64,000 nt of DNA. Source: Russula earlei (lineage: Eukaryota; Basidiomycota; Agaricomycetes; Russulales; Russulaceae). The DNA lies in NCBI GenBank assembly GCA_025769875.1, contig JAGFNK010000116.1, positions 59,703-123,702 of the forward strand, written 5' to 3'. Each line of letters opens with the position of its first letter. The first letter of the stretch is position 1. Below the pieces are notes generated by a model. That model searched no databases and was not told the origin of the DNA. It saw only the letters and a list, made by a program, of their open reading frames with translations. Both the position numbers and the translations under genes were made by a program. Shown here piece by piece: positions 19,371 to 60,515 of this stretch.

Positions 19371-19808
19371 ATGCGAACCTCAGGCTCTGCACATGTTTTA
19401 GCCCTATTTTGCCTTGCCATTGGCATCGCTCCTTTGTTCGCGCATGCTTCAGCGTACGCCAACCTCTCCAGTCCTCTTTCTCCCCTGAAATTGACGTTAC
19501 CTCGCAGAACTCATTTTGATAAGAGGGGGTTGTTTGGAAACGCTGAGACGGTGGAGTCAATATCTCAGAAGACGCACAATAACGCTGCGCTGATGTTTGC
19601 GGACATTATCGCGGCTCAACTCGCGCACGGTCATAATGCTCCCATACCCGATCAAGTGCGAAAGAATTTTGGAACCCGATACAAAGATATGAGCCAATTG
19701 GAGAAGACACTGCAGAAAATCCACTACGGTAACCCGACCGAGCATAGTAAAGAAACGTTGGCGCAACTGAGGGCGTATAAGGATGTGGCAGGACAGTTTA
19801 AGCATTAA
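19371..19808 (+). CDS. Small secreted protein, family member 1
   Basis: Exons 19371-19453 and 19508-19808 give a predicted 127-residue protein. Exon 1 is 83 nt and encodes MRTSGSAHVLALFCLAIG followed by IAPLFAHAS, a typical signal peptide. The intron (54 nt, GTACGC..CGCAG) is a multiple of three, so the unspliced frame is also open. I chose splicing because the two paralogues have exactly 83-nt first exons with a phase-2 intron at the same place. The mature part starts near THFDKRG and contains no cysteine, one DKRG dibasic site that a Kex2-like protease might cut, and mostly helical-looking sequence. It shares nothing obvious with the mature parts of its siblings. No catalytic motif or GPI signal is seen. 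An effector-like or cell-surface role is inference. Confidence 0.72.
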   Translation: MRTSGSAHVLALFCLAIGIAPLFAHASAYANLSSPLSPLKLTLPRRTHFDKRGLFGNAETVESISQKTHNNAALMFADIIAAQLAHGHNAPIPDQVRKNFGTRYKDMSQLEKTLQKIHYGNPTEHSKETLAQLRAYKDVAGQFKH

Positions 19809-21214
19809 TACGATTGCGAATCTTCACATCGGAAATAACACCTCTATTGTCACTGCACGGTGTGATCGCTCGAAGTCCATCTTCATGGCGAGAACAAGGG
19901 GGAGACGGACTTGGTTCGCCATTCGGCTGTGTGCATCAGCTAACGAACGGTAAGGGAGCTGAGAAGGTCATCAAGGTGATAGCGAATCTTGCATTGCTAA
20001 ACGCACGCGAGTGAGCACGTTCGGTCTGATGCATAGAGTCAGCACCCCGCAGGTGTGTCCGTAACGTGAAGACTTGCGCAGAGGTGTGAATTCAGCCACC
20101 AAAAGCCGCGGCTTGGGCCACAGCTTCAGGCTTTCCGTACCTCAAGCCTGAGCCGTGAGCCCCTCCGAGCCGTTGACACGGCCCATGTCGGCTCGGCTCC
20201 TGCAGGCTCAGCCCCGGCCGGCTTGCGGCTTTGAGCCGAGCCGCCAACGTCACTAGGCGTGAGGTCCAGAAATTGAGGTGGCAGGGTAGCGGGCGAAGCT
20301 GGAACTGAGGCAGCTTGAGATGAGACAAATGCTAGTAGGGCTGAGACTCCAGTAGCGACATCAGAACGGTGGGCAAAGAAACGTGAGGCAAGGGCAAGGG
20401 CAGATGACTGAGAGAGGTGATGGCTGAGACACGATCATTACAAGTTGTTTGTCTCTGCTTGCTTATCACGTGGCTGTGTCACAACCTGTTTGGTTGGTCG
20501 AAGCAAAGGAGGATGACCGGGCGGGATGTTCGTTGGGCGTGTTTTGGGTATTCACAACTTGGCGAGGTCCTCGCTGTCTGCAGTCTGCAGTCTGCACTGC
20601 ACGGCCGAAAGTTCGTCAGGGCATTCCGAGGTATTGTGATCAGACCGGTCCCCGCGATCGATGGCTGCATACGCGAAGAGCAGAGAGAGAACGACGTGCT
20701 CGCCTCGAGAGAGCCGTCCGCATATGAGATCATTCAGTTGGGGACTCTTGAAGACGGCGACGAGTACACCGGCAACACCGTAGTCTCACAAGAAAATGAA
20801 AATGTGCGCGACTCATAGATTGCATCCGACGAGAGAGGACACACCAAGCCGCGTGAAGACCTTCGACTCGACGTTTTCCTCTCATGCGTCAGTACACTCG
20901 TCCGATTCGCGTCTTCTTCCCCTCCCCGTTTTGAAAAAAAAAAAAAAAAAGGCAAATGAAACAGCCCTCGGTAAGTCGACACACCACTTCGGCGAGATGG
21001 CACATTACTCGGAAAAATGGGAGGCATCCAAGCTCTGCAGGAGCACCAAGGGCCTGCACACAGAACTAAAGCGCGACGCATGGATACCTCGTCGGGCAGA
21101 GTCAATGTAAAATTTGAGACGTTGAGGCCAAGGCAAGGCACGTGAGAATTACGAGTGACAAACAAGCCACCAACGCCATAGAGGTCTTCCCCCCGTCTAT
21201 CTCGCTCACCGAAC
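19809..21214. other. Gene-poor GC-rich interval
   Basis: No supported gene. A plus-strand frame of 133 codons (20417-20818) starts with a hydrophobic segment but matches nothing known and overlaps equally long frames on the other strand. A 17-base A-run lies near 20935. The last 100 bp before 21215 should contain the SDH4 promoter, but I see no clear TATA box. Confidence 0.35.
20095..20300. repeat. GC-rich imperfect repeats resembling hAT subterminal sequence
   Basis: Reiterated motifs such as AAGCCGCGGCTT, GAGCCGTGAGCC and GGCTCGGCTC resemble the subterminal repeats of the hAT element at 34302-38699. This could be a remnant of a related non-autonomous copy. No ends or target duplication were found. 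Confidence 0.3.
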
Positions 21215-22091
21215 ATGACTTCTAGGGTCTTCCTTTGCCACTCCCTGGCAGCAGCCAAGCGCCCACTCGTTCCTTTCCAGCTCGGTAAGTCACAGTACAT
21301 TTACCCCGACGGCTCATCGCTCACACCACTATGGCAATACCCCACATGGCCGTCATACCTCTTCCTCATTCACGCACGCACGCACGAAACAGTCAGCCGT
21401 TCGACTAGCAACTCTGCCTATGTTCCCGGTGGCCGTATGTCTTTTTCCACTCCTACCCGAACTTTGGAGCGAGCCGCTGATGATGAGTTGGGCATTCCGT
21501 TTCACCCCCCCCCCCCCCCCCCCATCCGTCCGGTTAGCAATCTACAAGGGCACAGTGAACGACGCGACGACGTTTCCTCCGGCGAAAAAATCAGTCGGGT
21601 CTCACCACTGGACGTTCGAGCGGCTGCTCTCGGCGGGCCTCGTCCCGCTGACGGCGGCGGCCTTTGTGACGTCGGGTTCGGCCACCCCTCTGCTTGACGG
21701 CTTGCTCGGCATCAGCCTCATCGTCCATAGCCACATCGGGGTGCGTTTCGCTGTCCCCACTGCCATCACCACCACACGTCCCCTTTTCCTTTCTTTTCTC
21801 GTTCTGCTCATGCTTGTTTTTTTCTTCTTCTTTCTTTTCACCCAGTTCGACACCATCCTGGTGGATTATGTCCACAAGCGCAAGTTCCCCACTATCGGGC
21901 CGGTACTTACTTGGACGTTGCGCGTGACATCGCTCGCCGTTGGAGTGGGCGTGTACCAATTCAACACAAACGATATCGGTGCGTTTGCCACAAGCGCGCG
22001 CATATGCACGTGTGCACCCGACTGACCAACAAACCGTTCTGCCTGCCATCTAGGCCTGACGGAACTCATTCGCCGGGTGTGGACTGCATAG
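21215..22091 (+). CDS. SDH4: Succinate dehydrogenase membrane anchor subunit (SDH4/CybS)
   Basis: Mitochondrial inner-membrane anchor of complex II, which helps bind haem b and ubiquinone. Five exons fit in frame: 21215-21284, 21393-21434, 21538-21740, 21846-21978 and 22054-22091 (161 residues, all GT-AG). The N-terminus (MTSRVFLCHSLAAAKRPL) is a basic mitochondrial presequence. Family landmarks are YVPGGPIYKGTVNDATTFPP, HWTFERLLSAGLVPLTAAAF, then HSHIGFDTILVDYV around residues 101-114, where the His residues and the Asp-Tyr pair correspond to haem- and quinone-site residues of CybS proteins. FNTNDIGLTELIRRVW closes the protein. Three membrane spans are expected. Intron 2 ends after a C-run of about 17 bases, a likely sequencing-error spot, but the splicing chosen avoids it. 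It is convergent with a possible tiny gene at 22460-22661. Confidence 0.93.
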
Positions 22092-22459
22092 TGAGTGTGT
22101 AGGCGGGGACTCGTCTCTCGGCTGCGCGTGTGTAAGAACCAGCCAATGAACGAACAAATCAACACAAGAATGTGTTTTCCTCTACCCATCACTACACGAC
22201 GCATTAGCTAGGGGATGCATATAGTATCACGAAGAACTGAGTGCCACATATTTGATACATTGAATGCTTCGCTTCGTTTCCGCACCGCCACCGACCACGA
22301 TGAATGACCTCGTGCGTTGTATTTTCTCGTGAATACATCAACGAGTTTGTCTTGACTTGTGCGCTTGTGCTTCGAGAATCGCACAGGCACAGCGTCCGAG
22401 ATAATCGCGGATAACGCAAAAATCAATCTCGCTTGGACCGCCCGCCCGGTCAAACGCTG
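22092..22459. other. Downstream region of SDH4, no gene seen
   Basis: Contains the expected 3' end region of SDH4 but no clear AATAAA. Short minus-strand frames have no recognisable content. Confidence 0.3.
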
Positions 22460-22661
22460 TTATGCGATGCCAGCCCCCAACGGCAAGATCCATGCTAGAG
22501 ACAGACATCAGCGGGACTGAACAGGGCGCGCGAGACGAGCACAGACGTCGGGAAAGGGAACGCTTACAGAGCTGGGTGAGCACGCGCTCGAGCAAGTGCG
22601 GTGCAGACAAGAGCGTGACGGCACCGGCGAGGACTTTGAGGAGTAAAGACCAGAGCGGCAT
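22460..22661 (-). CDS. Possible tiny hydrophobic protein (42 residues)
   Basis: On the minus strand ATG at 22661 opens MPLWSLLLKVLAGAVTLLSA, a membrane-spanning helix. A GTAAGC donor at 22567 and a CTCTAG acceptor at 22495 join 31 codons to a short second exon ending in TAA at 22460, giving 42 residues. Unspliced, the frame runs to 22338 (107 codons). Tiny inner-membrane proteins of this size exist in fungal mitochondria, but I recognise no family. This is a weak prediction. Confidence 0.25.
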
Positions 22662-23078
22662 GGCAGCCTGTTATGGCCGGTCGGAATGAACAAGAGTGAT
22701 TGGGCGGGGGTGGGGGCGGGAGAGGGACGGGATGGCAGTAGCGAGAAGGAGGTCATTGAACGAACAGGGGCCAAGATATATGCATGGGGATGACCCTTTG
22801 GGGGTGACCCTGTACCCAAGTCTACTACTACAGTAAGTCATCGGAGTTGTGGAAATGGAATCATTTGGCCCGTTCGGACTGGTTTGCCAAGAGAAGAGAC
22901 CAGGACTCGTGAAACCGGACCGGGGGTGCCCAAAACGTGAGAATATCGCCCGTTACTGCCGGTCCGGTCCATGACTCCCGGCGTCCTCGTTTCGTCGTTT
23001 CGTTTCACTTTCACAGGTATGGAACGTTTATGCGGAGCCGAGACACCTGACTGGACTCTTTTCCTTTTCTGTTTGTAG
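22662..23078. other. No gene resolved; probably upstream exons or promoter of a truncated gene
   Basis: GC-rich and G-rich (22705-22735). The acceptor-like TTTCACAG near 23017 suggests missing exons of the 23079-23260 gene may lie here, but no frame could be followed. Confidence 0.25.
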
Positions 23079-23260
23079 CCGGCGGCGCGGGACTAGTAGG
23101 CGGCGTTGTCCTTGCTGAAGCATTCGAGAATCATGAAGATGAGGTCCGTGAGGACGCATATGACCAAGGTCAGTTGAGTTTACAACCCCAGTCCACTGAT
23201 CTGGTCGTGCGGGGCGCTCTAGGCTTTGTAGACGGTCAGGATTATGGCGGTGATTGGTAG
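23079..23260 (+). CDS. C-terminal exons of a Gly-rich conserved-type protein, 5' part unresolved
   Basis: Exon 23079-23168 (after TTTGTAG) encodes GGAGLVGGVVLAEAFENHED and EVREDAYDQ. Exon 23223-23260 (after CTCTAG) ends FVDGQDYGGDW and stop. The pattern of a glycine-rich hydrophobic turn, then an acidic ENHEDE-type segment, then a short Gly/Asp tail occurs at the C-terminus of small fungal proteins. Both junctions keep frame. No start codon or earlier exon could be identified, so the gene may be partial. Confidence 0.4.
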
Positions 23261-23570
23261 CTACTTGGACGTGCGTTGATGTTGAGGATAACATCAGATC
23301 ATTGTTATATGTCTCCCCATTTGAGTAAGAATCACTGTTTGCGTTCCGTGTTTTTTGTGTGGACGGTACCGAAAGGGGTCGACGTCATGAGACAGACAGT
23401 CCCAAAAGGGCATGAAGGGGCGTGGATTGGTAAGTCAGTTCAGTTTTGACGCTGGCACACCGCCGAGCGCGATCGATAATATCTTTCTTGGCTTGGCACT
23501 GTCCCCGTCCGCGCCCGAGTCGCGCGCCCTTCCCTTGCTTTGCTCCGTACGGTAACGGTAATCCGGTACC
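23261..23570. other. Intergenic, nothing recognised
   Basis: No coding or RNA signal seen. There is a GTAAGT-type donor near 23429 without a credible exon before it. Confidence 0.3.
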
Positions 23571-24176
23571 GTGCCCTGCCACGCCCACGCCCACGCGCGC
23601 TCACATCCTGCAGCGGGCGCAAGATCGCAGTCGCGCGCTATGAACATAGCGCGTGATGCTGGTACTGGTGTACTAGCTAGTACTGGCAACCCACATGGGC
23701 AGTCGGCCCCTCGGCCATTGCTTCCGATTGCTGGTGATGATGTGATGTTTGAGCGGGCCTGGACCCGGATTGCAGATCGCAAGAAGTATGGCACATGGAC
23801 CTGGGCAGGTCTTCGGGACTTGGGGGAAGCTTGCTTCGGAAACTCCTTTCAAGTCACCGAACAACGCCATCTCCAGAGAGCTGATACTTGGGCATTTTCC
23901 ATCATGGCTCCTGACGCTCTGACCGTGACTCGACTCGGGAGCGTCCGAGTCTCGGCAACCGCCAGTCCTGATTTCCAACCCACGGACAGGGATCCGGCGA
24001 GCGGGTTTACAGCTGTATGGATGTGGATGACTACTGCGCACCCCCAGCCTCAGCTGTGGTACAGACACTACGGCTTCCATGCGGAAAATGACCTGAACGA
24101 TCAGCGCCCCTTTTATTTCTTATCCTTGGCCCAGACATCGATCGCTAGGGCTCCTGGCCAGCTTCATCTCCGGTAA
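23571..24176 (+). CDS. Hypothetical open reading frame, unrecognised
   Basis: 201 codons. The N-terminal 25 residues are low-complexity (Ala/His/Ser/Arg). An inner methionine at 23640 (MNIARDAGTG) would be an alternative start. The rest has mixed composition with several Trp residues (TWTWAGLRDLGEACFGNSF; TAVWMWMTTAHPQPQLWYRH) but no domain I know. A competing 135-codon frame lies on the opposite strand. It may be a genuine orphan gene or chance in GC-rich DNA. Confidence 0.25.
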   Translation: MPCHAHAHARSHPAAGARSQSRAMNIARDAGTGVLASTGNPHGQSAPRPLLPIAGDDVMFERAWTRIADRKKYGTWTWAGLRDLGEACFGNSFQVTEQRHLQRADTWAFSIMAPDALTVTRLGSVRVSATASPDFQPTDRDPASGFTAVWMWMTTAHPQPQLWYRHYGFHAENDLNDQRPFYFLSLAQTSIARAPGQLHLR

Positions 24177-25001
24177 ATTTTAAACGCCGAAGTGGCCCTC
24201 CAGCCAGAGATATCCCCATACGCGCGATATCTGGATGCGATCCAGGATGACGATCCTTCCTATGTCTTTCCTGAAGCGTTCACACGCAGGAGCCCCCGCA
24301 AATCTCTTCCCACTGGCGTGCACTCGCGGTTCGCGCGTTCGGTTGCAGTGCGCCCACTCGGAGGCCCCTCCATCCACATCGTCCTCCTCGCGGTACGTGT
24401 ACCGACAAAGCACCCATCCTCATATCGCGCTGCCCGCCGCCAAAGAGGGGTGGACGCGAGACCCCTTCTCCGCGTCATCTTTTCTGGCGCTCCTCAGCCC
24501 CCAGGCCCCAATCCGGCTCTGGTCCCCCTCCCCGCGGCTATCTTTTTGCAGGTACCGCGCGGGAACAGCGTATTTGCATTCGTTCGAGGAATGGCTCGGA
24601 GCGCGCGACCGTGACTCTAGTGACCGCGGACCGAGCAGTACAACGAAATGGTGCTTATGGTTCCAGAACCAGAACCAGGAGCAGAACGACGATCAAATGG
24701 GGATCACTAGTACCGTTAGTACGGAAGGGTGAGAGGTGATCGAGCGATCATACGCTCCCGCGCTGCTACAAGTGTAAGGACAATGTACGGAAAGCGGTGA
24801 TCGTGAACCAAACGTGGCACGATGGGACATCCCGTCTCCACCCTGGCCCGGCTTCCGGAAGGATAATTCGCTGGTCGCCACCTCAGAGTTTGTGGGACAG
24901 CCGGTCGCGTGCGAGATCTATTGAATCCGGGAGCGAAGCTGGGAGCAACGCTGTTCGAGGGTACGGGTCGTGAGAATGACATTCTGAAGGGAACGCGTGG
25001 C
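24177..25001. other. GC-rich intergenic region
   Basis: Several overlapping frames on both strands (for example 24192-24614 and 24235-24732) without motifs; none is convincing. Confidence 0.3.
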
Positions 25002-28230: not shown

Positions 28231-28245
28231 TTTCTTTTCCCCTTA

Positions 28246-32027: not shown

Positions 32028-32131
32028 GCCTGCTTAGCTCAGTGGTAGAGCGCGTCACTTGTATGGCCATGTGTACATACATACACATGATTTACATGAC
32101 GAGGTCAGTCGTTCAAACCGGCTAGTTGGCA
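32028..32131 (+). tRNA. tRNA-Thr (anticodon TGT) with a 32-nt intron
   Basis: Decodes ACA threonine codons. The cloverleaf folds: D stem GCTC/GAGC, anticodon stem CGTCA/TGACG, loop CTTGTA plus A with TGT at 32060-32062, and T stem AGTCG/CGGCT with TTCAAAC loop. An intron of 32 nt (32064-32095) sits one base after the anticodon, the canonical eukaryotic position. The acceptor stem GCCTGCT/AGTTGGC has one T-T mismatch and one G-T pair, where fungal tRNA-Thr normally pairs fully (GCCAGCT/AGCTGGC). It may be functional but slightly impaired. A T-run follows. Confidence 0.85.
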
Positions 32132-32138
32132 TATGTTC

Positions 32139-41568: not shown

Positions 41569-42360
41569 TTATCTGACAGCCTGAAGCCAGCCATCCCTTG
41601 AATGATCAATTTGAAACATCATGCACAACCTAAAGTTCATGTTGTGCCTGCTCAGCCTCTTGTTTCTGGTGCTTCTCAGCAGCAATGTGTTTGCTTTCAG
41701 TTCTTTTGGCATCCTCCTTTTCTGTACATTGTCCAGCTGCACCCTGACAATCTGCAGCTCTTGGTTGCTGCTCTTGGTTGATTGTGCATTCGCTGCACTA
41801 GGCTGGGGGATGGTGTGACCAAGGGCTTGCTGGGTGTTGAGGAGCTGTGTCCAGACCAGCCTTAGTTTTGTTAAAAGATCCTTGTGAGATAGTCCTCTAT
41901 CTTCCTCAAATGAGACAATTTCTGGAGTAATCAGTGCTTCAATCACAAGATCAGCTGTTGTAGAGCATGTTATATGATGTGCTTCTGACTCCAGATTGGC
42001 TAAGGCAATCATGAATCCAGAAGCAGCATCTCTAGGCTCCACATCTGTTGCTTGAACTGGCAGATCAGATTGAGGATCATAGCTGATTCCACAAGATCTG
42101 GATCTGATGTATTCATATCTTGGTCACTGTTACTAGGATTAGAGTAATCTGAGTCTGATCTTGGGCACCAATCATTATTGAGGGATCTATTGGGTCAGAT
42201 GAGGGGAACTCTGATTGGAATGATGTGGGTACATGAGCAATTGTGGATGAGGCTTGACTTGGAGAAAAATCTTCCTCAGTGAAGACTGCATGATTGACAG
42301 GGTAGAGGCCAGTTGCTTTGAATGCTGAAGCAATGAGAACTTTGGTGAAGACACCCCTAG
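41569..42360 (-). pseudogene. DDE_1/pogo-type transposase, C-terminal part
   Basis: Minus strand, truncated at 42360 by the copia insertion; 43 bp of the same exon continue beyond it at 47221-47263. The reading FTKVLIASAFKATGLYPVNH followed by AVFTEEDFSPSQ is the familiar end of the DDE_1 endonuclease domain. Past a stop at 42113 the coding character resumes (41569-42042) with a Leu/Gln/Lys-rich coiled segment typical of the C-terminus of these fungal proteins. The catalytic core is missing because the unit is also cut at 47264 by an LTR-C fragment. Confidence 0.65.
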
Positions 42361-42596
42361 TGTTGGAAACGCAGCCACCGCGTGGCAGAGAAACGGACCG
42401 AACGGACCAGATAGTTAGAACGCCATGTTGATACCACTGTTCCTTTTTCCTCAGTCTTTCATATACAAGACTGAGGTCAGTAGCACATTCCTTTACCATT
42501 TACATATACTCATTATGTACATAGCCTTCGTCCAACAGGTTAGCTTACTAACCTAATATTAGTCTTTCATATACAAGACTGAGCCTTCGTCCAATA
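42361..42596 (+). repeat. Copia 5' LTR
   Basis: TGTTGGAAACGCAGCC to GTCCAATA; the expected CA end is TA here. It has an internal direct repeat of AGTCTTTCATATACAAGACTG. The following GATTATGAGACCTG is a degenerate match to the half-tRNA-iMet primer-binding site (GGTTATGAGCCC type). Confidence 0.93.
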
Positions 42597-42668
42597 GATT
42601 ATGAGACCTGTCTGTCTCTGAAAGCTAAATCACTTCCATAAACAGCCAACATTTCGTAACTACGTAAC

Positions 42669-43751
42669 ATGAGTTCCTCAGCATCATCCCCAGCGCCTTC
42701 ATCCTCGAAAGGAAAGAGCTCTCCCACAGGTGGAGCCGCGGGAAAAATGGGCAGAACCAAACTCCAACGTCATGATGTGCCGATCCTCCAAGACAGTGCA
42801 GATGAATATGCTGACTGGAAGGGAGTAATGGAGGCAATATTCGAAGCAACAGATCTGTTAAACATCGTAAACGGAACTGAAAAGAAACTGGACACAAACG
42901 TTGACCCCGATGCCGCCGCCGACTGGACGGCAAGGGACCACGAAGCACACGCCCAAATCTTTATGTCTGTACGAGGGCACGCTCTCAAAACAATACTTGG
43001 CATAAAAGGTTCCACAGAGTGCTGGAAAAAGCTTTCAATTCAATTCGAAGGGCAAGGCGACCAACAAGTCGCCCACTTATTGTCAGACCTATATCTGACC
43101 ACCCTCTCAGACACCGAAGCAATGGCTCCCCAGCTCGAGCACAAAATGCAGCTCACACGCATGCTTGAAACACTCGGATACCCAATACCCAAAAACCTTC
43201 TCGCATGGATGATCATCATTGCACTCCCGGAAACGTTGGAAACTCATAAAACCATACTGTATTCCATGCCTTCCGACAAGCTCAGTACTGACTATGTCAT
43301 TGGCCAAATCCTGGCGAACGAACAACGCCGGATCCACGCGACTGGTACCACTGCAGCGGCCTACTTTGCCAAGGCAGGTAAAAAGGAGAAAAATAAAAAC
43401 AACCAAAGTGAGAAAAATAACAAAAAGTGCACCCACTGCAAGCGCAAGGGACACAAAGTAACGGAGTGCTGGAAACTCCACGGGAAACCCACCGAGAAGG
43501 CAAAAGTCGCAGCCACTGATGCTAGCGCACCGGGATCACCGATGTCCACATCGCTGACACTTACCAGCGCCGTGATCGCCAACGTCCCAGATCCTGACTA
43601 TGTTATTAGATTATACCATGCAGTTGGGGACGATCCTGACCTGACCACCGCCCACGCGTTAAAGACCCAGGATGAACTTCGAACAGCCAACCTCACTAAC
43701 AGTTTGGCTCATCGACTCTGGGGCATCTCGCATAATGACCTCTCACTGTGA
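42669..43751 (+). CDS. Copia Gag
   Basis: Capsid/nucleocapsid polyprotein of the element. The open frame begins ATG 42669 (MSSSASSPAPSSSKGKSS). Residues about 35-250 are the UBN2-type Gag domain (DEYADWKGVMEAIFEATDLL; ECWKKLSIQFEGQGDQQVAH). A CCHC zinc knuckle follows, CTHCKRKGHKVTEC, then WKLHG. The last ~25 codons (after DELRTANL) are out of frame with the protease, so the true Gag-Pol fusion switches frame near 43690. In copia elements Gag and Pol are normally one frame, so this looks like an indel. Confidence 0.9.
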   Translation: MSSSASSPAPSSSKGKSSPTGGAAGKMGRTKLQRHDVPILQDSADEYADWKGVMEAIFEATDLLNIVNGTEKKLDTNVDPDAAADWTARDHEAHAQIFMSVRGHALKTILGIKGSTECWKKLSIQFEGQGDQQVAHLLSDLYLTTLSDTEAMAPQLEHKMQLTRMLETLGYPIPKNLLAWMIIIALPETLETHKTILYSMPSDKLSTDYVIGQILANEQRRIHATGTTAAAYFAKAGKKEKNKNNQSEKNNKKCTHCKRKGHKVTECWKLHGKPTEKAKVAATDASAPGSPMSTSLTLTSAVIANVPDPDYVIRLYHAVGDDPDLTTAHALKTQDELRTANLTNSLAHRLWGISHNDLSL

Positions 43752-44355
43752 ATGGTTCAACCAATATACCACTCTCCCAAACCCAACTCAAGTCATGCTT
43801 GGAGATAATAGTTCTATTCCTGCAATTGGAGTCGGCCAAGTACAAGTCCGAATGCATGCAAACGGCACGTGGAGCAATGTTATGTTCCGCGACATCCTGC
43901 ACGTCCCAGACTTACACGGAAATCTCTTGTCAGTTTCCCATCTGGCTTGACGCGGCGCAGAAGTGCGATTCCAGAGTCAGACATGTGGCATATATGAACA
44001 GAACCAGCTAATATGTGAAGGGTCCCTACACGGTACACTATACGTCATGGCCATATCCTCCCCCAAGTCCCTGTCCGTGCGCATCACGACGCTGGACCAC
44101 TTCCCCGCGGAAGGCGACAAGCCATATGCAGTCACCCTCACTGCGCGCCTCAAAACATCCAAGGCCTCCCTACATGTTTGGCACCAGCGTCTCGGCCACT
44201 TGAATACCGACACCATAACCCGGATGCTGAAGAAAGGGATGGTGAAAGGGATGGAGATTACTGGAAAGCGACTCACCACCAGTATTTGTGAGCCTTGCTT
44301 GAAGGGAAAGCAAACGCGCCTCGAAATCTTGAAGGCGACAGGAAACGCGCGCTGA
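43672..44355 (+). pseudogene. Copia protease and GAG-pre-integrase region
   Basis: The frame contains WLIDSGASRIMTSHCEWF, the aspartic protease active site DSGA, followed by LHVPDLHGNLLSVSHLA. A TGA at about 43948 interrupts it, probably CGA to TGA. The same frame resumes to LHVWHQRLGHLNTDTITRML and the C-terminal HHCC-like Cys pair CEPCLKGKQTR of the pre-integrase domain, and ends at TGA 44355 after a frameshift. Confidence 0.85.
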
Positions 44356-44359
44356 TGTC

Positions 44360-45264
44360 ATGTTAGGCCGCGTCTTCTCCGACATCTGTGGGAAGATGCC
44401 CACTAGAACACCCCAGGGTCATGAGTACTTTGTCACCTTTGTGGATGACAAGTCGAGGAAAGTGTTTGTTGGTGGACTTAAATTCAAATCCGACACACTT
44501 GAGCACCTCAAAGCGTTCACGGCACGTGCTGAAGTCGAAACCGGTCAGCGGCTGAAAGTCCTCCGCTCCGACGGAGGGGGCGAATACACTGGGAAAGAGT
44601 CTCAGAAGTTCCTCACAGAGAAAGGAATTAGGCTGGAACTCACCACCCCAGACACATCTCAGCATAATGGGGTCGCGGAACGTATGAACCGGACGCTCTT
44701 GGACAAAGTCCGGGCAATGCTCACGGACGCCTTGCTGCCTGAGTCCTTCTGGCTCCATGCCCTTGAATACGCGGCGCATATCCACAACGTCACCCCCACA
44801 CATGCACTCGATGATATGACACCCGAGGAAGCCTGGAGCGGGAACAAACCCAACCTCTCACGGCTTCAGCGTCTTTGGCGCACGTGCGTTTGTCCACATC
44901 CCGGAGGATAAACGCACCAAGTTAGATGCGAGGTCACTGGTGTGCACACTCCTGGGATATGCTCCCCAGAGGAAAGCCTACAAACTTATCCACCGGCCCA
45001 CTCACCACATCCTTGAATCGCGCGACGTCGTATTCGATGAAGGGGGCCCAGCAATTCCGCATGTTGAGCAGGACAGTCCTCGAATCTGACTCAGACAGTG
45101 AAAATGAACAGGCAGATGGGGTGGAAAATGAGACTGAGGGGGCGGAAGGCCCACAACTGACGGTAGAGGCGGAACTACCACCGCGCGCCGAACCACAATG
45201 CGCGGTTCGACACCACTCCACCTGCCCAGCCATCAATACAAGCAGTACAACCTACACCATATGA
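44360..45264 (+). pseudogene. Copia integrase, frame-broken
   Basis: The frame 44360-44911 carries the integrase core: FVTFVDDKSRKVFV (first Asp), VLRSDGGGEYTG (second Asp), and DTSQHNGVAERMNRTLLDKV (Glu). A frame change near 44870 leads to ARAFVHIPEDKRTKLDARS and a second near 45080 to an acidic linker (LESDSDSENEQADGVENE). All three catalytic residues are present. Confidence 0.88.
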
Positions 45265-45478
45265 AGTGGACAACGTACCTGTCCAGCCCACTTCCGGACG
45301 ACCGAGGCGTACCATACGCGCACCAACTCGTGATGACGACCCCCTGGTATTCCACCACATCGTACATGCAACGTAAGAAACGTACCGAACGAGGAAACGT
45401 GGCACACATTGATGTGACCACTGACCCAAAAACTGTACGCGGAAGCCATGTCCCAGCCCCGATGCGGCGGAATGGGAA

Positions 45479-46965
45479 ATGGCTTGCGACGATGAGCGTC
45501 GCGCGTTCGAGTCCATGGATGTGTTCGAAATTGTCCCGCGGCCACAAAACCGAAAGGTAGTTGGCAGCAAATGGGTCTTCAAAATAAAGAGGGGACCGGA
45601 CGGAACAATAATCAAATATAAAGCTCGCCTTGTCGCGCAGGGATTCACCCAGATCGAAGGTATCGACTTCGAACAAAACCTTTGCGCCTGTCGCGAAACT
45701 CATGTCCCTACGTGCGATCCTCGCCCTAGCCGCTGCGCACAACCTAGAGGTCCATCAGATGGATGTCAAGTCAGCATACTTGAACGGAGAGCTGAAAGAT
45801 GAAATCTACATGGATGCACCTCCTGGCTTCGACATTCCAAACGGCATGGTACTGAAACTACTCAAAGCCGTCTATGGGACTAAGCAAGGGGGGAGAGTCT
45901 GGTATGAGAACATCAAAGACTCACTAGGTGACATGGGCTACACCCACACTGATGCCGACCACGCCGTCTTCGTCCGTCGTAACCATGAGCGCCTGTCCAT
46001 AATTGCGCTCTACGTTGATGATATCACCATGGTCTCTGATGACCTAGATTCCATCAACATTGACAAAAACAAACTAAAACAGAAGTATCAGATGACGGAA
46101 CTAGGGGAGATAACCTGGATACTTGGTGTACACGTCACGCGAAACCGGGAAGAGGGCTGGATAGCACTCTCTCAGGAGAAATACATTGAAGAAGTTCTTC
46201 AATGCCTAGGGAAGTTGGACGTTCGACCGATCAGCACCCCCATGCTAGCAAATGAACACCTCCTGAAAGTGGACGCACCGGATGTGGACGTCAAGTCCTA
46301 CCAACGCACACTCGGAGCCATCATGTACCTCATGCTAGGCACCCGACCTGATCTCGCCTTCACTGTCGCAGCCCTTGGACGACACGCTGCATGCCCCGGA
46401 AATGACCATCAACGCGCACTCGACCGCGCCATCCGATACATCCGAGGCACAAGCGACAAACGCCTAGTCTTCCAACGCGGTCTCGGGACTCAGCCAACCC
46501 TAGTCGGGTATGCGGATGCAGACTGGGCCAGCGACGTGAATGATCGCAAGTCCACATCGGGCTTCGTCTTCATGTTGGCAGGAGGGGCTGTGAGTTGGAG
46601 CTCAAAGAAACAAGCCTCGGTTGCATTGTCGAGCACCGAGGCAGAATACATTGCAGGAGCACATGCCTCTAAAGAGGCCATTTGGCTGATGACGTCTACT
46701 CACCGAATTGGGTGAAGACACACATCTCCCCACCACTCTCCATATCGACAACCAGTCAGCCATCGCCATCGCGAAGAACCTGGAGTTCCATGACTGCACG
46801 AAACACATTGAAGTGAGACACCACTTCCTGCGCCAGAAAGTCGAGCTCTGCGAAGTCGAACTCGCCTACATCCCTACTGGGGAACAACTTGTGGATGTGC
46901 TGACGAAGGGGCTGAGTCGAGAGAAACATGAGCATTTTATGCAGGAGATGGGAATATGCCACTAG
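45479..46965 (+). pseudogene. Copia reverse transcriptase and RNase H, frame-broken
   Basis: Reading starts in one frame (VVGSKWVFKIKRGPDGTIIK), shifts near 45680 into the long frame to 46715, and shifts again near 46705 to the last frame ending at 46965. Seen in order: TFAPVAKLMSLRAILALAAA, QMDVKSAYLNGELKDEIYM, IIALYVDDITMVSDD with the YVDD catalytic motif, then RNase H with GYADADWASDVNDRKSTSGF, SSTEAEYIAGAHASKEAIW and HIDNQSAIAIAKN. The order and motifs are complete, so only indels block expression. Confidence 0.92.
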
Positions 46966-46979
46966 GGCTGAGGGGGCAG

Positions 46980-47215
46980 TGTTGGAAACGCAGCCACCGC
47001 GTGGCAGAGAAACGGACCGAATGGACCGGATAGTTAGAACGCCGTGTTGATACCACCATTCCTTTTTCCTCAGTCTTTCATATACAAGACTGAGGTCAGT
47101 AGCACATTCCTTTACCATTTACATATACTCATTATGTACATAGCCTTCGTCCAACAGGTTAGCTTACTAACCTAATATTAGTCTTTCATATACAAGACTG
47201 AGCCTTCGTCCAACA
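46980..47215 (+). repeat. Copia 3' LTR
   Basis: 236 bp, ending in CA, preceded by the polypurine-type AGGGCTGAGGGGGCAG. It differs from the 5' LTR at six sites, all C/T or G/A. Confidence 0.95.
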
Positions 47216-47220
47216 CCTAG

Positions 47221-53372: not shown

Positions 53373-53553
53373 CTCCGAGCGGATGTGGATCCGAGGAAAT
53401 GAGGCCCCGAAGGCGGGACCAACGCGACTCCATTGCCCAGTCGGACTTGCCTCCTAGCGGATGTGGATCCGAGGAAATAAGGGCCCGAAGGCGGGACCAA
53501 CGCGACTCCGTTTTCACTGGGAAAAAAAGCATGCATTGCCCAGTCGGACTTGC
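53372..53553 (+). repeat. Tandem duplication in the upstream module of secreted-protein gene 2
   Basis: Two adjacent units (53372-53449 and 53450-53553), each starting CCTCC.AGCGGATGTGGATCC and ending CCCAGTCGGACTTGC. The second has about 26 extra bases before the end. A single copy of the unit lies at 59731-59840 upstream of gene 3. Confidence 0.8.
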
Positions 53554-53737
53554 AGAGGGTGTTTGATCAAATTGTGCGACGATTGAGTACTTGCTATCAG
53601 CTGATGAGGTGGGAGCACTCTGGCACCGGCAGTGCGGAGTTTTGAGGCGCTCGGGACTCTTAACGCTTACAGGCCTAAATGATTGATGACGGGGGCTTCC
53701 AATCCTCGCTGGTATCCCGAGGCCGAGGTTCAAGGAG

Positions 53738-53747
53738 TATATTAAGA
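53738..53747 (+). promoter_or_regulatory. TATA-like box of secreted-protein gene 2
   Basis: GTATATTAAG, 76 bp before the shared leader motif GGTACTGGTTACCG and 148 bp before ATG. Confidence 0.5.
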
Positions 53748-53885
53748 ACGGACAAGTAGGGGGTTTGACCCTCACATCCAAGAGCTGTGCTCCCCATTCG
53801 TTCCACGCGACTTGGTACTGGTTACCGGCATTTTCACTCCCTCGCAGACTTTTTCATATTTTGAATCGACAATCCCACGCACCAG

Positions 53886-54298
53886 ATGCGTCCGTTACCC
53901 ATCGTTGCCCTTTTCTGCTTCGCCGTTGGCATCGCTCCGTCGTTCGCGCTCCCATCGAACATTGTTCCGTATGTTTTTCAAGTTTTGTCGAGTCCCAAAA
54001 ACTAATATTACGTTGCAGACGTGGGTTTTCGCTCGGGAAGAAGGCAAAGGATGAGACGTTGGGGAATACGAAAAAGGATGAGACGGTCGGGAAGAAGATA
54101 AAGAAAAAGTTTATGAAGTTGGGGAAGAAAAAAGATGAGATCGTTCTTCCAACAGATAAATATGGTAGGGTGATCGGCGGCGCGGCAATAGTGAGACAGA
54201 TAATGAAGGGGGGGGAGGAGGAGGTAGAAGAGGCGCCTGGTCCTGAAACTTCGAGTACCCCCGTCGACAAGAAAGGGAAAGGCCGAGAATTACCATGA
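53886..54298 (+). CDS. Small secreted protein, family member 2 (Lys-rich)
   Basis: Exons 53886-53968 and 54019-54298; 120 residues. Exon 1 (83 nt) encodes a signal peptide, MRPLPIVALFCFAVGIAPSF, with likely cleavage after SFA. The 50-nt intron is GTATGT..TTGCAG with a CTAAT branch site. Exon 2 begins RGFSLGKKAKDETLG, then repeats a LysLys/Asp-Glu-Thr pattern (KDETLG, KDETVG, KDEIVL), continues into VIGGAAIVRQIMKGGEEEVE and a Pro/Ser/Lys tail. There is no cysteine and no known domain. The mature part is unrelated to family members 1 and 3, although exon 1, the intron start and about 500 bp upstream are close to member 3. It lies just downstream of the TPR/CCCH pseudogene and 345 bp upstream of HSP60. 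Secretion is predicted, function unknown. Confidence 0.78.
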
Positions 54299-54642
54299 TG
54301 ATTTAATTTTTCGATGCGCGTAGTAGCCAGTTGTCTTTTCCTCTCACGCGTCGAACTGTCTCGCCTTGCTTCCCCAAGGTTCGCTCTCTCGTTGTCCTAT
54401 GTTCTGGCTAGGTATATAGGTTACGCTTGAGCTTCATTTAGAGGCCAAGTTGTCTACATTCATTTACTAAGGCCGACTATATATGGCTTGTATCTGCGTA
54501 AGCATGAGCCAAATAAATGCCAAATAAAAGCAAAGCCCGCGTCCTTCATTCCTTGCTTCATTTTCTTTCCTGGTCTCAACCCTTCCCTTGCCACTCCCCT
54601 TCCACTCCCCTTCTCTCCTCTGTTTCCCCACATTCCTACACC
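54299..54642 (+). other. HSP60 upstream region
   Basis: Intergenic, ending in a C/T-rich leader (54570-54640) just before the HSP60 start, as is common in basidiomycete promoters. I see no clear heat-shock element (repeated GAA/TTC). Confidence 0.4.
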
Positions 54643-56625
54643 ATGCACCACGTCTCCTCCACTTCTTCCCGCGCTCTCCGTCGCGCCTCAGCCAAGGCCA
54701 CTCGCGCCGTTCTCGCTCGTGGCGCCCATAAAGAAATCAAGTTTTCCAACGAGGGCCGCGCGAGCATCCTCAAAGGTGTCGACGTACTTGCAAACGCTGT
54801 CAGTGTTACGCTTGGGCCGAAAGGTTTGTTGTTGCCTCCCTTTCGTGTTCCCACTCTTACGTTTTTGCTGACGTGTCCGCGTGTGTAGGTCGGAATGTTA
54901 TCATCGAGCAGTCGTTCGGTGGTCCCAAAATCACGAAGGGTAAGCCATTCTCTCGAGAAGCATCTGCTCTTTTTTTCTCATTCTTGGTTCTTCAGATGGT
55001 GTCACAGTCGCCAAGGCCATCACGTTGAAGGACAAGTTTGAGAATCTTGGAGCTCGGTACGTAGATTGAAATGTCGCAATGCATGAATATTTGTCTCAAT
55101 TAGTCTTTCTGCCCTGTTCTTCAGATTGGTTCAGGACGTCGCACAAAAAACGAACGAGATTGCCGGTGATGGTACCACAACGGCGACAGTTCTTGCACAC
55201 GCTATATACGCCGAGGGTGTCAAGAACGTTGCTGCAGGCTGCAACCCCATGGACCTTCGCCGTGGGTCTCAGGCTGCTGTGGAGCGCGTCGTCGAATTCC
55301 TTTCCAAAAACACAAAAACAATCACCACCACCGCCGAGATCGCACAGGTTGCAACAATTTCTGCCAATGGCGACACCCACATCGGCAACCTCATTGCCCA
55401 GGCCATGGAAAAGGTGGGCAAGGAAGGCGTCATCACAGTGAAGGAGGGACGCACCATTGAAGACGAGATTGAAATCACTGAGGGCATGCGATTCGATCGT
55501 GGTTTCATTTCTCCCTACTTTATCACCGACGTCAAGGCGCAAAAGGTCGAGTTTGAGAAGCCATATATCCTTCTGTCAGAGAAGAAGATCTCCCTTCTCC
55601 AAGACATCCTTCCGTCCCTTGAAGCTGCCGCCCAGGCTCGTCGGCCTCTACTCATCATTGCGGAGGATGTGGATGGCGAGGCCCTTGCTGCTTGCATCCT
55701 TAACAAGCTTCGTGGTCAGCTTCAGGTGGCTGCTGTAAAGGCGCCTGGCTTTGGTGACAATCGCAAGAGCATCCTCGGTGACCTTGCTATTTTGACTGGT
55801 GGAACCGTCTTCACTGACGAGCTCGATATCAAACTTGAGCGGGCTACGGTGGACCTTCTTGGATCTACGGGTTCTGTGACCATCACCAAAGAGGATACCA
55901 TCATCCTTAATGGCGAGGGTTCAAAAGATGCAATTCAGTCGCGGTGCGAGCAGATCCGTTCGCTTGTTGCCGACCCCACGACTAGCGACTACGATCGCAC
56001 TAAATTGCAGGAACGTCTTGCGAAGCTGTCTGGTGGTGTTGCCGTCATCAAGGTTGGCGGTTCTTCCGAGGTGGAGGTTGGTGAGAAGAAGGACCGCTAC
56101 GATGATGCTCTTAATGCAACGCGTGCCGCTGTTGAGGAGGGCATACTTCCCGGAGGCGGTGTTGCACTGCTCAAGGCTTCACTTGCTCTCGTCTCTTCCG
56201 CACCTGGCGCGGTTAATACGTCTTCAGCTTCAAGCACACCGAACCCAGATGCGAAACCGATCCAGACGGCCAACTTTGACCAGGACCTTGGCGTGTCTAT
56301 CATCCGTCGTGCTTTGACCCGCCCTACTCGCACAATCCTCGACAATGCCGGCGAAGAATCGAGTGTGATCGTTGGGACGCTTTCTTCGCAATATGGCGCG
56401 CCAGAGAAGTTTGCGTGGGGCTACGACGCGAGCAAGGGTGAATACGTCGACATGATAAAGGCAGGTATCGTCGATCCACTCAAGGTCGTCCGGACTGCGC
56501 TTGTAGACGCGGCGGGTGTTGCGAGCTTGCTCACAACAAGCGAGGCGAGCATCGTCGATGGCGAGGAGGAAAAACCTGCGGGCGGTCCTGGTATGGGTGG
56601 TATGGGTGGTATGGGTGGCTTCTAA
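54643..56625 (+). CDS. HSP60: Mitochondrial chaperonin HSP60
   Basis: ATP-driven folding chaperonin of the mitochondrial matrix. Exons 54643-54823, 54889-54939, 54996-55056 and 55125-56625 give 597 residues; all introns are GT-AG and clustered at the 5' end. The N-terminal ~30 residues ([20 protein letters not shown]) form an arginine/serine-rich presequence ending near [10 protein letters not shown]. Next are [19 protein letters not shown], the nucleotide-binding [14 protein letters not shown], and [20 protein letters not shown]. The chaperonin signature [14 protein letters not shown] is present with one change ([20 protein letters not shown]). The C-terminal GGM repeat tail ends GGMGGMGGF. 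Length and all key regions match the family. A short Ser/Ala/Asn insert ([20 protein letters not shown]) lies in the equatorial domain, which is usual in fungi. Confidence 0.98.
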
Positions 56626-57444
56626 ATGTGTTGCCGGACTAATTCGTTGCGATGTTACGCATTGTCTCTGCTCCATGCTTTAGACTGCTGACATTCGCGA
56701 CACCCCGATCGTTGGGAAATATCTCCCAGCTACTCGTCCACACCTTCCTCTCCCTCCCATGCTGATCTTCCAGCACCTTATAAAGTAATTTACATGCATG
56801 CTTAGTTACGTATTCGTATCGTAGAATACATCACCACCACTCATCATCGTTATGGTTTTTATGACACGAGTTTCCGCATATTATCGCATGCGATCTTTAG
56901 TGAGTATCGAGTGTCCCTGCGCATAAGCTGATTGGGATTGCTCCGTTCCAGTATTGCCGCTGCTTGGGTCATGTATAGACCACACCGCTTCATTTTGCCA
57001 GCCATTTGCATCTAACACCGTCACGGGGTGCGCCGAGCTGGTGAGGTGGTTCATCCCCCTCAAGCGCATGTTTCACGTAGTGGCCGTATCATGTGGCCGC
57101 ATGGGACGACAACTTTGCTTTCATCCATCCTGCCATAACTCTGGAGGACCATGGGTCTATCTGGACACTTTCACGGATTGAATGGACCAGACCCAAGGGT
57201 CAAACATGTGCATAGCCTATGGTCCGGACAGAAGTACAAGAATGGCAGACTGTCAGATGCATGGGGGTTGACTACAGAAGTTAATGGTGTATGTCACGAG
57301 AAATGCATCCAGTTATCCTGTCCCCGAGGGGGAGCGCATCCCACATCGTAATCCTGGCAGTCATTCGAACAAATACGCGAAGCAAGTCATCGGACGCCCT
57401 CCGAACGACACATCAACCAAAAAAATATATACTCCATGCGGCCA
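56626..57444. other. Intergenic after HSP60, no gene seen
   Basis: No credible gene. Short frames on both strands near 56881-57351 have no motifs. Confidence 0.35.
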
Positions 57445-58263
57445 TCAATCCAAAATAATCGATCCTCGAGATGCGTCGTGAGAGCGACTTATCCGAACGC
57501 ATTTGTTGGACCGGAGAGGAAGGACTCGGACGGGGGGGGGGGGGAGTGAACACACATCGGTCACCGTATACGACGCGAGAAGAAGGCGCACACCATGTCC
57601 CGTTCTCAATCCCGTCCTGTTTGGGCGGCTCGTGATGGAGGGAGGGAGTGGTGAAATCGGAAGTATTCCGCAGCGCCCAGACCACCGACGATCGCGGCCA
57701 CCGCCGCACCCGTCAACAGACGGGCAACCTGTTTGAGACAGCCTGCGCTCGAGAGACGATCGGGGTTTGAGGAGAGCGTCGAGGGAGGTCCATCGTCCCG
57801 CTCCGATCTGTGCAAAGCAAAGGCAGAGTCCGTTTTCAAGGGGGGTGCGACAGAAGGATGCCGAGGTGGAGCACCTAGGCGCAGACGACGGGCGAGGCAG
57901 AAGAAGGCAAAAAAAAAAAAAAGGAGGAAGCAAGGATGGTCGATATGATCGAGGGCCCTCGGATGTGATTCGAAAATGAAAAGTCGTCGAGTCACGCCAT
58001 GAGAAAGCGCAGACGCCGGCGTCGGCAACACGTCGGGCCCAGGGCGTGTGAAGTGGGAGCAAAAAAAAAAGTTGAAACTGAAATGTGAGGAGACAGTGGT
58101 TTGGATTGGATCGGAAACTGTACAAGCCTCGATGTGCACGACACCGATACATACGTGTGCTGATCGTTGACCCCCCGTCTCGGGCCAGGGAGAGCGTTTG
58201 AGTGCCACCAGTACTGGGCGGCCACCATGAGCCTGTTCGTTGCTGTGATTTTGGCGTCCTCAT
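57445..58263 (-). other. Possible gene with a C-terminal membrane helix, unresolved
   Basis: Minus-strand frames overlap here. ATG at 58228 (MVAAQYWWHSNALPGPRRG) with a GTATGT donor near 58158 could be a first exon. A downstream stretch at 57640-57740 encodes VARLLTGAAVAAIVGGLGAA, a transmembrane-like helix, then EYFRFHHSL. An acceptor CGCAG lies near 57752. Exon linkage in between is not settled, and poly-T and poly-G runs may add sequence errors. No family is recognised. Confidence 0.25.
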
Positions 58264-59640
58264 CTCGTCTTGCGGTGACTCACGTAGCCTCGAGAAGAAA
58301 CAACCACTCGCTCTGACTTGTCAAGCTGCCGAGTCGCTGTTTGCGTGTATATTAGAAGGCGTGCAAGGTAACTGGGGGACAAACGCCCGAGTTGAAGCGC
58401 GCAGCAGCCACGCGTCGAAGGACTCTCGGACAAGCCATTTTCTTTTCCTTCCCCTTCCCCTCGACAGCTTACCCCGTCATCGCCCAGTTCGCTGACACAG
58501 ACGCCCCGACGTGCACAATCGCACCTTCAAGTTGCCCGCCTCACTGCCTCCGCTACCACATCATTCCTTTATCCCCGCGCTCGAACCTCATCGTAGAGCA
58601 GCCCCCGGTACGTAGCCGTCCTTAACTTTAGCCTCAATACCTGCCCCATCGTCTTCGCTTCGCCTATCGTCGTTATAGCGCGTCCTCCGACTCTGCCCTG
58701 ATGCCCCCCTCTCGCTATGAACCGGAGGTGCTGCCAGCTGTGTAAACTTGGCTCCTGACCGTGAGCAGCTTGCACCTCGCGATCTAAACTCCAGTCTCTC
58801 GCTCCAATTCCCTGCATGCCGCCGCGCTTCCCCCGCTCTCTGCACAAAGTCTTCCTCCCGACCAAAATTTCCGTCTCCTCTCCTTCTTGTCGCCGTTCGA
58901 CTCCCCCACTCCTTTGCACCGTCTCGCCCTCCCTTAGGCAGTTCTGCGCCTACATTGCTTGATTCCTCGCATCCGCCCTTGTCCGTCCGTCTTGTACGTG
59001 CCGCCGCCGCCCCATCTGCTGGCCTTTCCGCGTGTCCTCTCGTCACCGGCCGTGCTGCGCCTGCCTTTGTGCACTTCGCTTCCCCTCCCCCCCTTCTCCC
59101 TTCTTCGGACCAAGACCACAAGAGTTTCAACATCAACGGGGACAGTCATTGTTATTTCCGATAGAGAGGTTGTATACATATTGATTCTCCAAAGTGTGCT
59201 CTGTCTGCCCTTTGAGCGCGGCGGTTGAGGCACGGAATAGAACGAGCTGTTCAACAATGTCGTCGAGTCACTAGTCTATAGGCTGAAGTGAACCAACTGG
59301 CTGGCCAGGCATGTCCAAGTCCTTGCCAATTCCACAAACATGTGTGTAGACTCGTGCCCCTCGTCCGGCCAGCAAGGAATCAGCCGGCGCAGCAACCCCA
59401 AGAGCACACACACGCAGCTCTAGGCCCTCATTTTTGTGTGTTTATGTCCCCCGCATTCATACCGCTACCCACGTCATCTAGAACGAGGCCGCTTCATTCT
59501 GTGTGTAGCCATCACTGCGGTGTTTGTGCGGTCGATCGAGTGCCACAGCCCCGCAGAACTGCCCAATGGGCAACTCGGTGGTGTTGCTGTCACGGCTCAC
59601 TTGTGGCTACAGACTGGCCACTAGGTGATTGGCCCTGAGG
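58264..59640. other. GC-rich interval without a resolved gene
   Basis: Open frames on both strands (58748-59164 plus; 58588-59136 minus) overlap each other and carry no domain; codon-level evidence for either is weak. C/T-rich tracts suggest a promoter or leader near 58430-58560. Confidence 0.3.
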
Positions 59641-59720
59641 GCACATCATGACCATAATGATGACGAGTGATGGCAAAAATACGGCGTTAGCAGGTTTGCT
59701 TTTTCATGTTAACGAGAACA

Positions 59721-60126
59721 GGTTTGCCCCACCTCCCAGCGGATGTGGATCCACTATTGAGGAAATGAGGGCCCAAAGGCGGGACCAACGCGACTCCGTA
59801 TTCACTGGGAAGAACGCACGCATTGCCCAGTCGGACTTGCAAAGGTTTGTGGATTGAGTACTTGCTAACATCTGATGAGGTGGGAGCACTGGCACCGGCA
59901 GTGCGGGAGTGTTGAAGCGCTCGGGACTCTTAACGCTTGAATGCCTAAATGATTGATGGTATCCCGAGGGTCAAGGGGTATAAGAACGGACAAAGGAGGC
60001 GGGTTTGACCCTCACACCCGAGAGCTGTGCTCCCCATTCGTTCTACGCGGCTTGGTACTGGTTACCGGCATTTTCACACCCTTGCAGACTTTTTCATATC
60101 TTTGAATTGACGATCCCACGCACCAG
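59721..60126 (+). repeat. Upstream module of secreted-protein gene 3 (copy of 53361-53885)
   Basis: Closely similar to the sequence upstream of secreted-protein gene 2 from GGTTTGC onward, with one unit instead of two of the tandem duplication and several short deletions. It includes the TATA-like GTATAAGAAC (59979) and the leader motif GGTACTGGTTACCGG (60054). Confidence 0.85.
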
Positions 60127-60515
60127 ATGCGTCCGTTGCCCATCGTTGCCCTTTTCTGCTTCGCCGTTGGCATCGCTCCGTCGTTCGCGCTCCCATCAAG
60201 CATTGTTCAGTATGTTTTTCAAGTTTCGTCGAATCCTCAAAATTGAGTTTACCTTGCAGACGTGGGAAGAAGATGAGGGATAGGATGAAAACCCTTGTAG
60301 AATCTGATTATGCTCCCGACCTGGGGCTGGGTGAGCTAAATAAAAGCGGGGCGCCAAAGAGAAACGGGGCGCAACCGAGTGAGCGGACGGGAGAACGTCC
60401 TCCTGAGCATAAGCATAAGAACTTCAAACCAAACTTGGGTACGACGAAAGAAGAGGAGCCGGTGCTGACGGTGCACCACACGGATCACGTGACAGGGAAA
60501 GAATGGGACTCATAA
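60127..60515 (+). CDS. Small secreted protein, family member 3
   Basis: Exons 60127-60209 and 60260-60515; 112 residues. Exon 1 (83 nt) is almost identical to member 2 (MRPLPIVALFCFAVGIAPSF, then ALPSSIV). The 50-nt intron has the same borders (GTATGT..TTGCAG). Exon 2 begins RGKKMRDRMKTLVESDYAPD and continues with a charged, Pro/Glu/Lys/His-rich sequence ending TDHVTGKEWDS. After the first two or three residues it shows no similarity to exon 2 of member 2. No cysteine, no domain. Secretion predicted; function unknown. Confidence 0.78.

What the first reader, a model, noticed from the sequence alone, without database searches (positions are those of the whole stretch)
19371..60515. Small secreted protein family: conserved secretion exon, unrelated mature proteins
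Genes at 19371, 53886 and 60127 share an 83-nt signal-peptide exon, a phase-2 intron of 50-54 nt at the same place, and a leader motif GGTACTGGTTACCG 72-85 bp before ATG. Their second exons (about 85-100 codons) share no evident similarity. Genes 2 and 3 are nearly identical in exon 1 and upstream, so the divergence of exon 2 is abrupt at the intron. This suggests exon replacement or very fast evolution of the mature protein behind a fixed secretion cassette, as seen in effector-type families. Secretion is predicted; function is inference.
Basis: partly seen in the sequence, partly recalled or inferred. Interest (0 to 1): 0.88.

Follow-up and report, generated by a model that had tools for sequence, protein, structure and literature searches.

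The report
Hypervariable secreted protein family in Russula
A mushroom genome (best match Russula earlei) carries a large family of small genes that keep the same leader, secretion signal and intron while the secreted part of the protein changes faster than the DNA around it, a gene plan better known from cone-snail venoms than from fungi.

Summary
All three genes have an 83-nt signal-peptide exon, a phase-2 GT-AG intron (54/50/50 nt) and an exact GGTACTGGTTACCG leader; public gene models agree for genes 1 and 3. The 66.6-Mb genome (Russula earlei by protein identity) holds at least 150 exon-1 matches (scoring cap, haplotypes not merged) and 252 leader places (13 in the control). I modelled 89 loci. 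In pairs with exon 1 at 90-97%, upstream and intron are 91% identical, but exon 2 is 70% and the 3' flank 61% (shuffled exon 2: 65%). Shuffling of existing exons is not the main cause: 44 of 46 pairs with similar mature proteins also have similar first exons, gene 1's mature relatives lie behind the cassette, and several pairs show exon 2 as a divergent island. In well-aligned codons of 12 pairs, amino-acid change exceeds silent change 1.76-fold (p=0.0035); an unfiltered alignment of 9 pairs gives 1.0. 'Unrelated' is too strong: gene 1's mature part is a confidently predicted three-helix bundle shared with relatives. Best reading: a rapidly diversifying secreted family, found only in R. earlei so far, with conotoxin-like gene architecture; an effector role is inference.

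The parts
19229..19235 (+). gene 1: TATAAAA, 57 nt before the leader motif
   Evidence: read; in 52 distinct loci 39 TATAWA hits lie in the 130 nt before the leader against 2 after shuffling, 22 of the 39 at -70 to -61. Genes 2 and 3 have only TATATT/TATAAG-like sequences
19286..19299 (+). gene 1: leader motif GGTACTGGTTACCG
   Evidence: exact
19371..19453 (+). gene 1: exon 1 (83 nt, signal peptide)
   Evidence: public model P0006 identical
19454..19507 (+). gene 1: phase-2 intron, 54 nt
   Evidence: same intron with lengths 52, 53 and 56 in close relatives
19508..19808 (+). gene 1: exon 2, mature protein (predicted three-helix bundle) with stop
53814..53827 (+). gene 2: leader motif
   Evidence: exact
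53886..53968 (+). gene 2: exon 1 (83 nt)
53969..54018 (+). gene 2: phase-2 intron, 50 nt
   Evidence: contains an in-frame stop if retained
54019..54298 (+). gene 2: exon 2 with stop
   Evidence: 120-aa spliced protein
60054..60067 (+). gene 3: leader motif
   Evidence: exact
60127..60209 (+). gene 3: exon 1 (83 nt)
60210..60259 (+). gene 3: phase-2 intron, 50 nt
   Evidence: contains an in-frame stop if retained
60260..60515 (+). gene 3: exon 2 with stop
   Evidence: 112-aa spliced protein, public model P0001 (111 aa, partial)

Best explanation
A large family of small secreted proteins, known so far only from Russula earlei. A 5' module (TATA box, GGTACTGGTTACCG element, signal-peptide exon, short phase-2 intron) is multiplied by duplication and stays recognisable. 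The second exon, the mature protein, then diverges in place much faster than the non-coding DNA around it, by amino-acid-changing substitutions, in-frame indels and altered ends, most likely under diversifying selection. Shown here: the architecture, the minimum family size, the contrast between 5' module and exon 2, divergent islands, and excess amino-acid change in well-aligned codons. Inferred: secretion (from the hydrophobic N-terminus), co-regulation through the leader element, selection rather than local hypermutation or old allele lineages for the unalignable parts, and the role: most likely contact with host roots (effector-like) or with soil microbes.
For: At least 150 exon-1 matches (cap) and 252 leader places against 13 control. 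54 of 74 modelled first introns cannot be retained without stop or frameshift. Pairs with exon 1 at .90-.97 (73 of 2701): upstream .91, intron .91, exon 2 .70, 3' flank .61, shuffled exon 2 .654. Gene 2 haplotypes: flanks 97-99%, exon 1 96%, exon 2 87.5% with 53 gap columns whose indels are multiples of three until close to the stop, next 200 nt 91%. Islands with similarity on both sides of exon 2: C30_42898/C30_82778, C50/C465, C3/C1138, gene 1/C150, C51/C105. Mature similarity tracks exon-1 similarity: 44 of 46 pairs against 145 of 2701 overall. Codon test on 12 disjoint pairs: pS .057, pN .101, ratio 1.76, Fisher p .0035, with the silent value close to upstream .059 and intron .050 in the 15 pairs; exon 1 there pS .046, pN .030.
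Against: The 12 pairs were picked by hand from those with detectable mature similarity. Without the alignment filter, 9 alignable of 15 disjoint pairs give pS .194, pN .195, no excess (p=.52), and silent sites then look four times faster than the flanks, which selection on the protein alone does not explain; gene 3 haplotypes give .59. C51/C105 (98% over 1.66 kb upstream, about 40% in exon 2) is hard to reach by ordinary substitution. Some near-identical copies differ by frame changes (C455 pair, C1038/C452). No expression, proteome or population data were available.
Confidence: 0.68

Rival explanations
1. Exon or module replacement: the 5' module is copied in front of different second exons, or exon 2 is overwritten by conversion, so that mature proteins are swapped rather than diverged.
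For: Similarity often ends 5-25 nt into exon 2 in the MRPLPI subfamily; 46 pairs with exon 1 >=.90 and upstream >=.85 have no mature hit (a few of these are model or frame artefacts, e.g. C97/C1019 with exon-2 DNA at .98); C53/C178 share a patch of about 75 nt in exon 2 although the rest is much less alike; C51/C105.
Against: Mature similarity behind dissimilar first exons is rare: 2 of 46 pairs. Searches with two mature proteins of gene 1's clade give 13 places at E<=10; 12 coincide with 5'-module matches, the 13th (C195:28032, E 1.9) lies about 3 kb behind one. Exon 2 of C51 finds only itself, exon 2 plus flank of gene 2 and exon 2 of gene 3 only themselves and the other haplotype, apart from short or 3'-side matches.
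Confidence: 0.15
2. The 5' module is homogenised by gene conversion (or exon-2 alleles are kept by balancing selection), so exon 2 is simply older than the flanks suggest.
For: Between gene 2 haplotypes divergence rises toward exon 2 on both sides (intron 90%, next 200 nt 91%, beyond 98%), as expected around an old balanced segment; high silent divergence in unfiltered alignments.
Against: In cleanly alignable pairs silent change in exon 2 equals the flank level while amino-acid change is higher, e.g. C320/C1289 0 silent and 22 replacement, C260/C465 2.5 and 27.5. Other haplotype-like or duplicate pairs are near-identical throughout (C1_249334/C1111, C7/C1194).
Confidence: 0.12
3. Decaying pseudogene-like copies: exon 2 drifts because most copies are non-functional and only the duplicated 5' end stays recognisable.
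For: Frame changes in some near-identical copies (C455 pair, C1038 against C452); no expression evidence.
Against: Loss of constraint gives at most the flank rate, and exon 2 exceeds it. Most indels between gene 2 haplotypes keep the frame, and gene 1's clade keeps a confident fold.
Confidence: 0.05

Closest known systems
Conotoxin gene superfamilies of cone snails (PMC3862624; passages seen)
   Different: Conotoxins are cysteine-framework peptides with a propeptide exon and introns above 3 kb in an animal; here 55 of 74 mature parts lack cysteine, introns are 49-76 nt, the organism is a fungus and no sequence relation is claimed. Works alike, is not a member.
Candidate secreted effector proteins (CSEPs) of Blumeria graminis (PMC3582587; passages seen)
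   Same: Large lineage-restricted fungal family of small secreted proteins, shared relative intron position, purifying selection on the signal peptide and positive selection in mature parts of several families.
   Different: CSEPs often carry an N-terminal Y/F/WxC motif and an RNase-like fold; here mature parts mostly lack cysteine and gene 1 is a predicted three-helix bundle. CSEPs are from an ascomycete pathogen.
[quoted passage not shown] passages seen)
   Same: Small, secreted, species-specific proteins of an ectomycorrhizal fungus.
   Different: MiSSPs are defined by induction in symbiosis, which is unknown here. In Lactarius, of the same family, few were found and species-specific clusters were not enriched in them.
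Frog-skin antimicrobial peptide genes (recalled; PMC7106915 seen only as listing and abstract start)
   Same: Conserved signal peptide in front of hypervariable mature peptides (recalled); many mature parts here are net positive, 60 of 74.
   Different: Short vertebrate peptides, no sequence relation; antimicrobial action not tested here.

Membership tests
Conotoxin superfamilies | Conserved signal exon and intron, hypervariable mature exon | tested here: met
   architecture only
Conotoxin superfamilies | Cysteine framework in the mature peptide | tested here: not met
   55 of 74 mature parts have no cysteine
Conotoxin superfamilies | Propeptide exon and introns longer than 3 kb | tested here: not met
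   first introns 49-76 nt in 74 models
Blumeria CSEPs | Signal peptide, no transmembrane segment in the mature part | tested here: met
   hydropathy only, no SignalP: hydrophobic core in the first 25 residues of 74 models, 1 of 74 mature parts with a TM-like window
Blumeria CSEPs | N-terminal Y/F/WxC motif | tested here: not met
   no cysteine in the mature part of 55 of 74 models; the remaining 19 were not checked for the motif
Blumeria CSEPs | RNase-like fold | tested here: inconclusive
   gene 1 predicted as three helices, gene 3 without confident fold; other members not modelled
MiSSPs | Small secreted protein | tested here: met
   median mature length 84; secretion by hydropathy only
MiSSPs | Induced in ectomycorrhiza | not testable with these tools
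   no expression data
Known Pfam families | A Pfam match shared by members | tested here: not met
   11 proteins of A2: 25 families, each in 1 member, best E .0021; 20 rows of A1, one of them partly mistyped: 7 families, at most 2 members, best E .0036; P0001, P0006, P0009: 0 families

The most novel reading that the evidence does not exclude
The mushroom has a focal diversification process: something acts between the intron and the stop codon and changes or replaces exon 2 faster than selection on ordinary point mutations allows. Hints are C51/C105 (98% over 1.66 kb upstream, about 40% in exon 2, 25 identical nt around the stop, no relative of C51's exon 2 found in the genome) and the sharp edge at the start of exon 2 in many pairs.
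Probability: 0.15. Interest if true: 0.9.

Novelty: new variant of a known kind. Interest (0 to 1): 0.66.

Why it matters
It gives an ectomycorrhizal mushroom genus a large family of rapidly evolving secreted proteins with a DNA address tag (leader plus exon 1) by which members can be found, counted and followed in populations and root tips. The flanks serve as a built-in clock, so it is a clean natural case for asking how a mature exon can evolve faster than the DNA around it, a question so far studied mostly in animal venoms.

Full report
What was checked. Spliced, they give proteins of 127, 120 and 112 residues. The leader is exact in all three and the window holds no other match with up to two mismatches. 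Of 34 public proteins collected, 11 are identical to one of my models; P0001 and P0023 (both marked partial) are contained in one; P0003, P0004, P0008, P0009 and P0027 belong to a modelled locus but differ, P0008 and P0009 by keeping the intron. P0006 is spliced gene 1, P0001 spliced gene 3. No public model of gene 2 turned up.

Where it is. The window is G000:C116:59703-123702 of a 66.6-Mb assembly in 1374 contigs. Matching proteins are named Russula earlei (Russulales); that the genus is ectomycorrhizal is stated for Russula in PMC8417538 (passage). Contig C198 carries what looks like the other haplotype of the gene 2-gene 3 stretch: the same two genes, 6,240 nt apart there and 6,241 here, with flanks 97-99% identical around gene 2 and upstream 98-99.8% for gene 3. 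Counts of places therefore include both haplotypes.

Size of the family. The 28-residue exon-1 peptide gives 150 matches, the scoring cap, of 229 candidates. The leader with at most one mismatch occurs 252 times against 13 for the reversed control; 68 in that listing are exact by my count. Of the 30 exact places fetched, 27 have a family exon 1 within 150 nt, one about 455 nt downstream, and two have none that passed my score cut. Of 90 distinct exon-1 loci 89 could be modelled, 80 of them with a phase-2 first intron; 74 complete phase-2 models with at least 30 mature residues were kept for statistics and 15 dropped. The splice models are my own heuristic. 72 of the 89 have the leader with at most 3 mismatches within 200 nt upstream. 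A TATA box commonly stands 40-80 nt before it (39 hits in 52 loci, 2 after shuffling); by the usual TATA-to-start distance (recalled) the leader would lie in the 5' untranslated region.

The intron is real. First-intron lengths run from 49 to 76 nt with all three remainders modulo 3, and 54 of 74 could not be retained without a stop or a frameshift. The other 20 could be, gene 1 among them.

5' module against mature exon. In pairs with exon 1 at 90-97% (73 of 2701), upstream averages .91 and intron .91, but exon 2 .70 and the 3' flank .61; shuffled exon 2 gives .654. 46 pairs with exon 1 >=.90 and upstream >=.85 have no detectable mature similarity; a few are frame or model artefacts (C97/C1019 and C260/C1020 have exon-2 DNA at .98 and .97).

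Replacement or divergence in place. A mature blastp hit is found in 46 of 2701 pairs; 44 of these have exon 1 at .85 or more, against 145 of 2701 overall. Shuffling of existing exons should put similar second exons behind dissimilar modules; only C53/C178 and C21/C62 do, and C53/C178 looks like a short converted patch. Similarity resumes after exon 2 between the gene 2 haplotypes, C30_42898/C30_82778, C50/C465, C3/C1138, gene 1/C150 and C51/C105. In two cases where the 3' flank is lost, gene 3 and C51, a dispersed repeat lies there. Two mature queries from gene 1's clade find 13 places at E<=10; 12 sit behind a 5' module, the 13th (E 1.9) about 3 kb behind one.

Selection. In 12 disjoint pairs picked by hand among those with mature similarity, counting only in-frame codons in well-aligned stretches, exon 2 has 24.7 silent changes on 430 sites (.057) and 150.3 amino-acid changes on 1493 sites (.101): ratio 1.76, Fisher p .0035. 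The silent value is close to upstream (.059) and intron (.050) in the 15 pairs, a partly different set. Strong cases are C320/C1289 (0 silent, 22 replacement) and C260/C465 (2.5 and 27.5). Against this: 9 alignable of the 15 disjoint pairs without the filter give pS .194 and pN .195 (p .52; 6 pairs unalignable); 11 pairs give 1.20; gene 3 haplotypes .59. I read the high silent values as misalignment in indel-rich exons, but older exon-2 lineages are not excluded. Exon 1 pools at pS .046, pN .030.

What the mature proteins are. A profile of seven proteins from gene 1's clade finds mature parts of other subfamilies (C50, C21, C62 at E about 1e-4); the second round is trained on such hits and so is no independent proof (1 of 520 shuffled proteins at E<0.01). 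The predicted structure of gene 1 has three helices, residues 43-68, 76-102 and 106-126, with block pLDDT 88-97 from residue 41 (11 sequences). Gene 3 gives no confident fold (mean pLDDT 54.8), but with three sequences that says little. No Pfam family is shared. Mature parts have median length 84, mostly no cysteine (55 of 74 without), and net positive charge in 60 of 74.

How it most likely works. A multiplied secretion module with its own promoter supplies expression and export (inferred); the mature exon is then driven, or at least free, to change. In an ectomycorrhizal fungus the simplest driver is contact with roots or soil microbes, and nothing here tests either.

Known or new. The gene plan is that of conotoxins (PMC3862624, passages) and resembles mildew CSEPs (PMC3582587, passages); membership in either fails on tested features. 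The searched papers list no description of this family. I file it as a new variant of a known kind.

Noticed in passing
L111, L112, L113, L114, L115 (C465, C1020, C260, C50, C62) and L003 (C1289): A second copy of the first intron, bounded at or near its splice sites, lies about 90-145 nt after the first; in C50 and C62 the copy ends in CAA instead of CAG and reads as coding sequence. Likely internal tandem duplication leaving the intron as the recognisable relic.
   Followed up: partly
19454-19507: 20 of 74 first introns, including gene 1's, could be retained without stop or frameshift, and two public models (P0008, P0009) keep theirs: a possible alternative N-terminus.
   Followed up: partly
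60517-60600: A dispersed repeat begins just behind the stop codon of gene 3; related sequence lies near other family genes such as C51 and upstream of C299 and C822.
   Followed up: no
42359-47213: Copia-type retrotransposon with 98% identical 236-nt repeats at the ends and gag, integrase and reverse transcriptase frames.
   Followed up: no
55087-56625: A chaperonin (Cpn60) reading frame stands between genes 2 and 3.
   Followed up: no
L014/L015 (C455:36819 and 40185): Two inverted copies 99.6% identical over 2.9 kb whose predicted mature proteins differ after a frame change; assembly artefact not excluded.
   Followed up: no
32028-32131: tRNA gene by Rfam.
   Followed up: no
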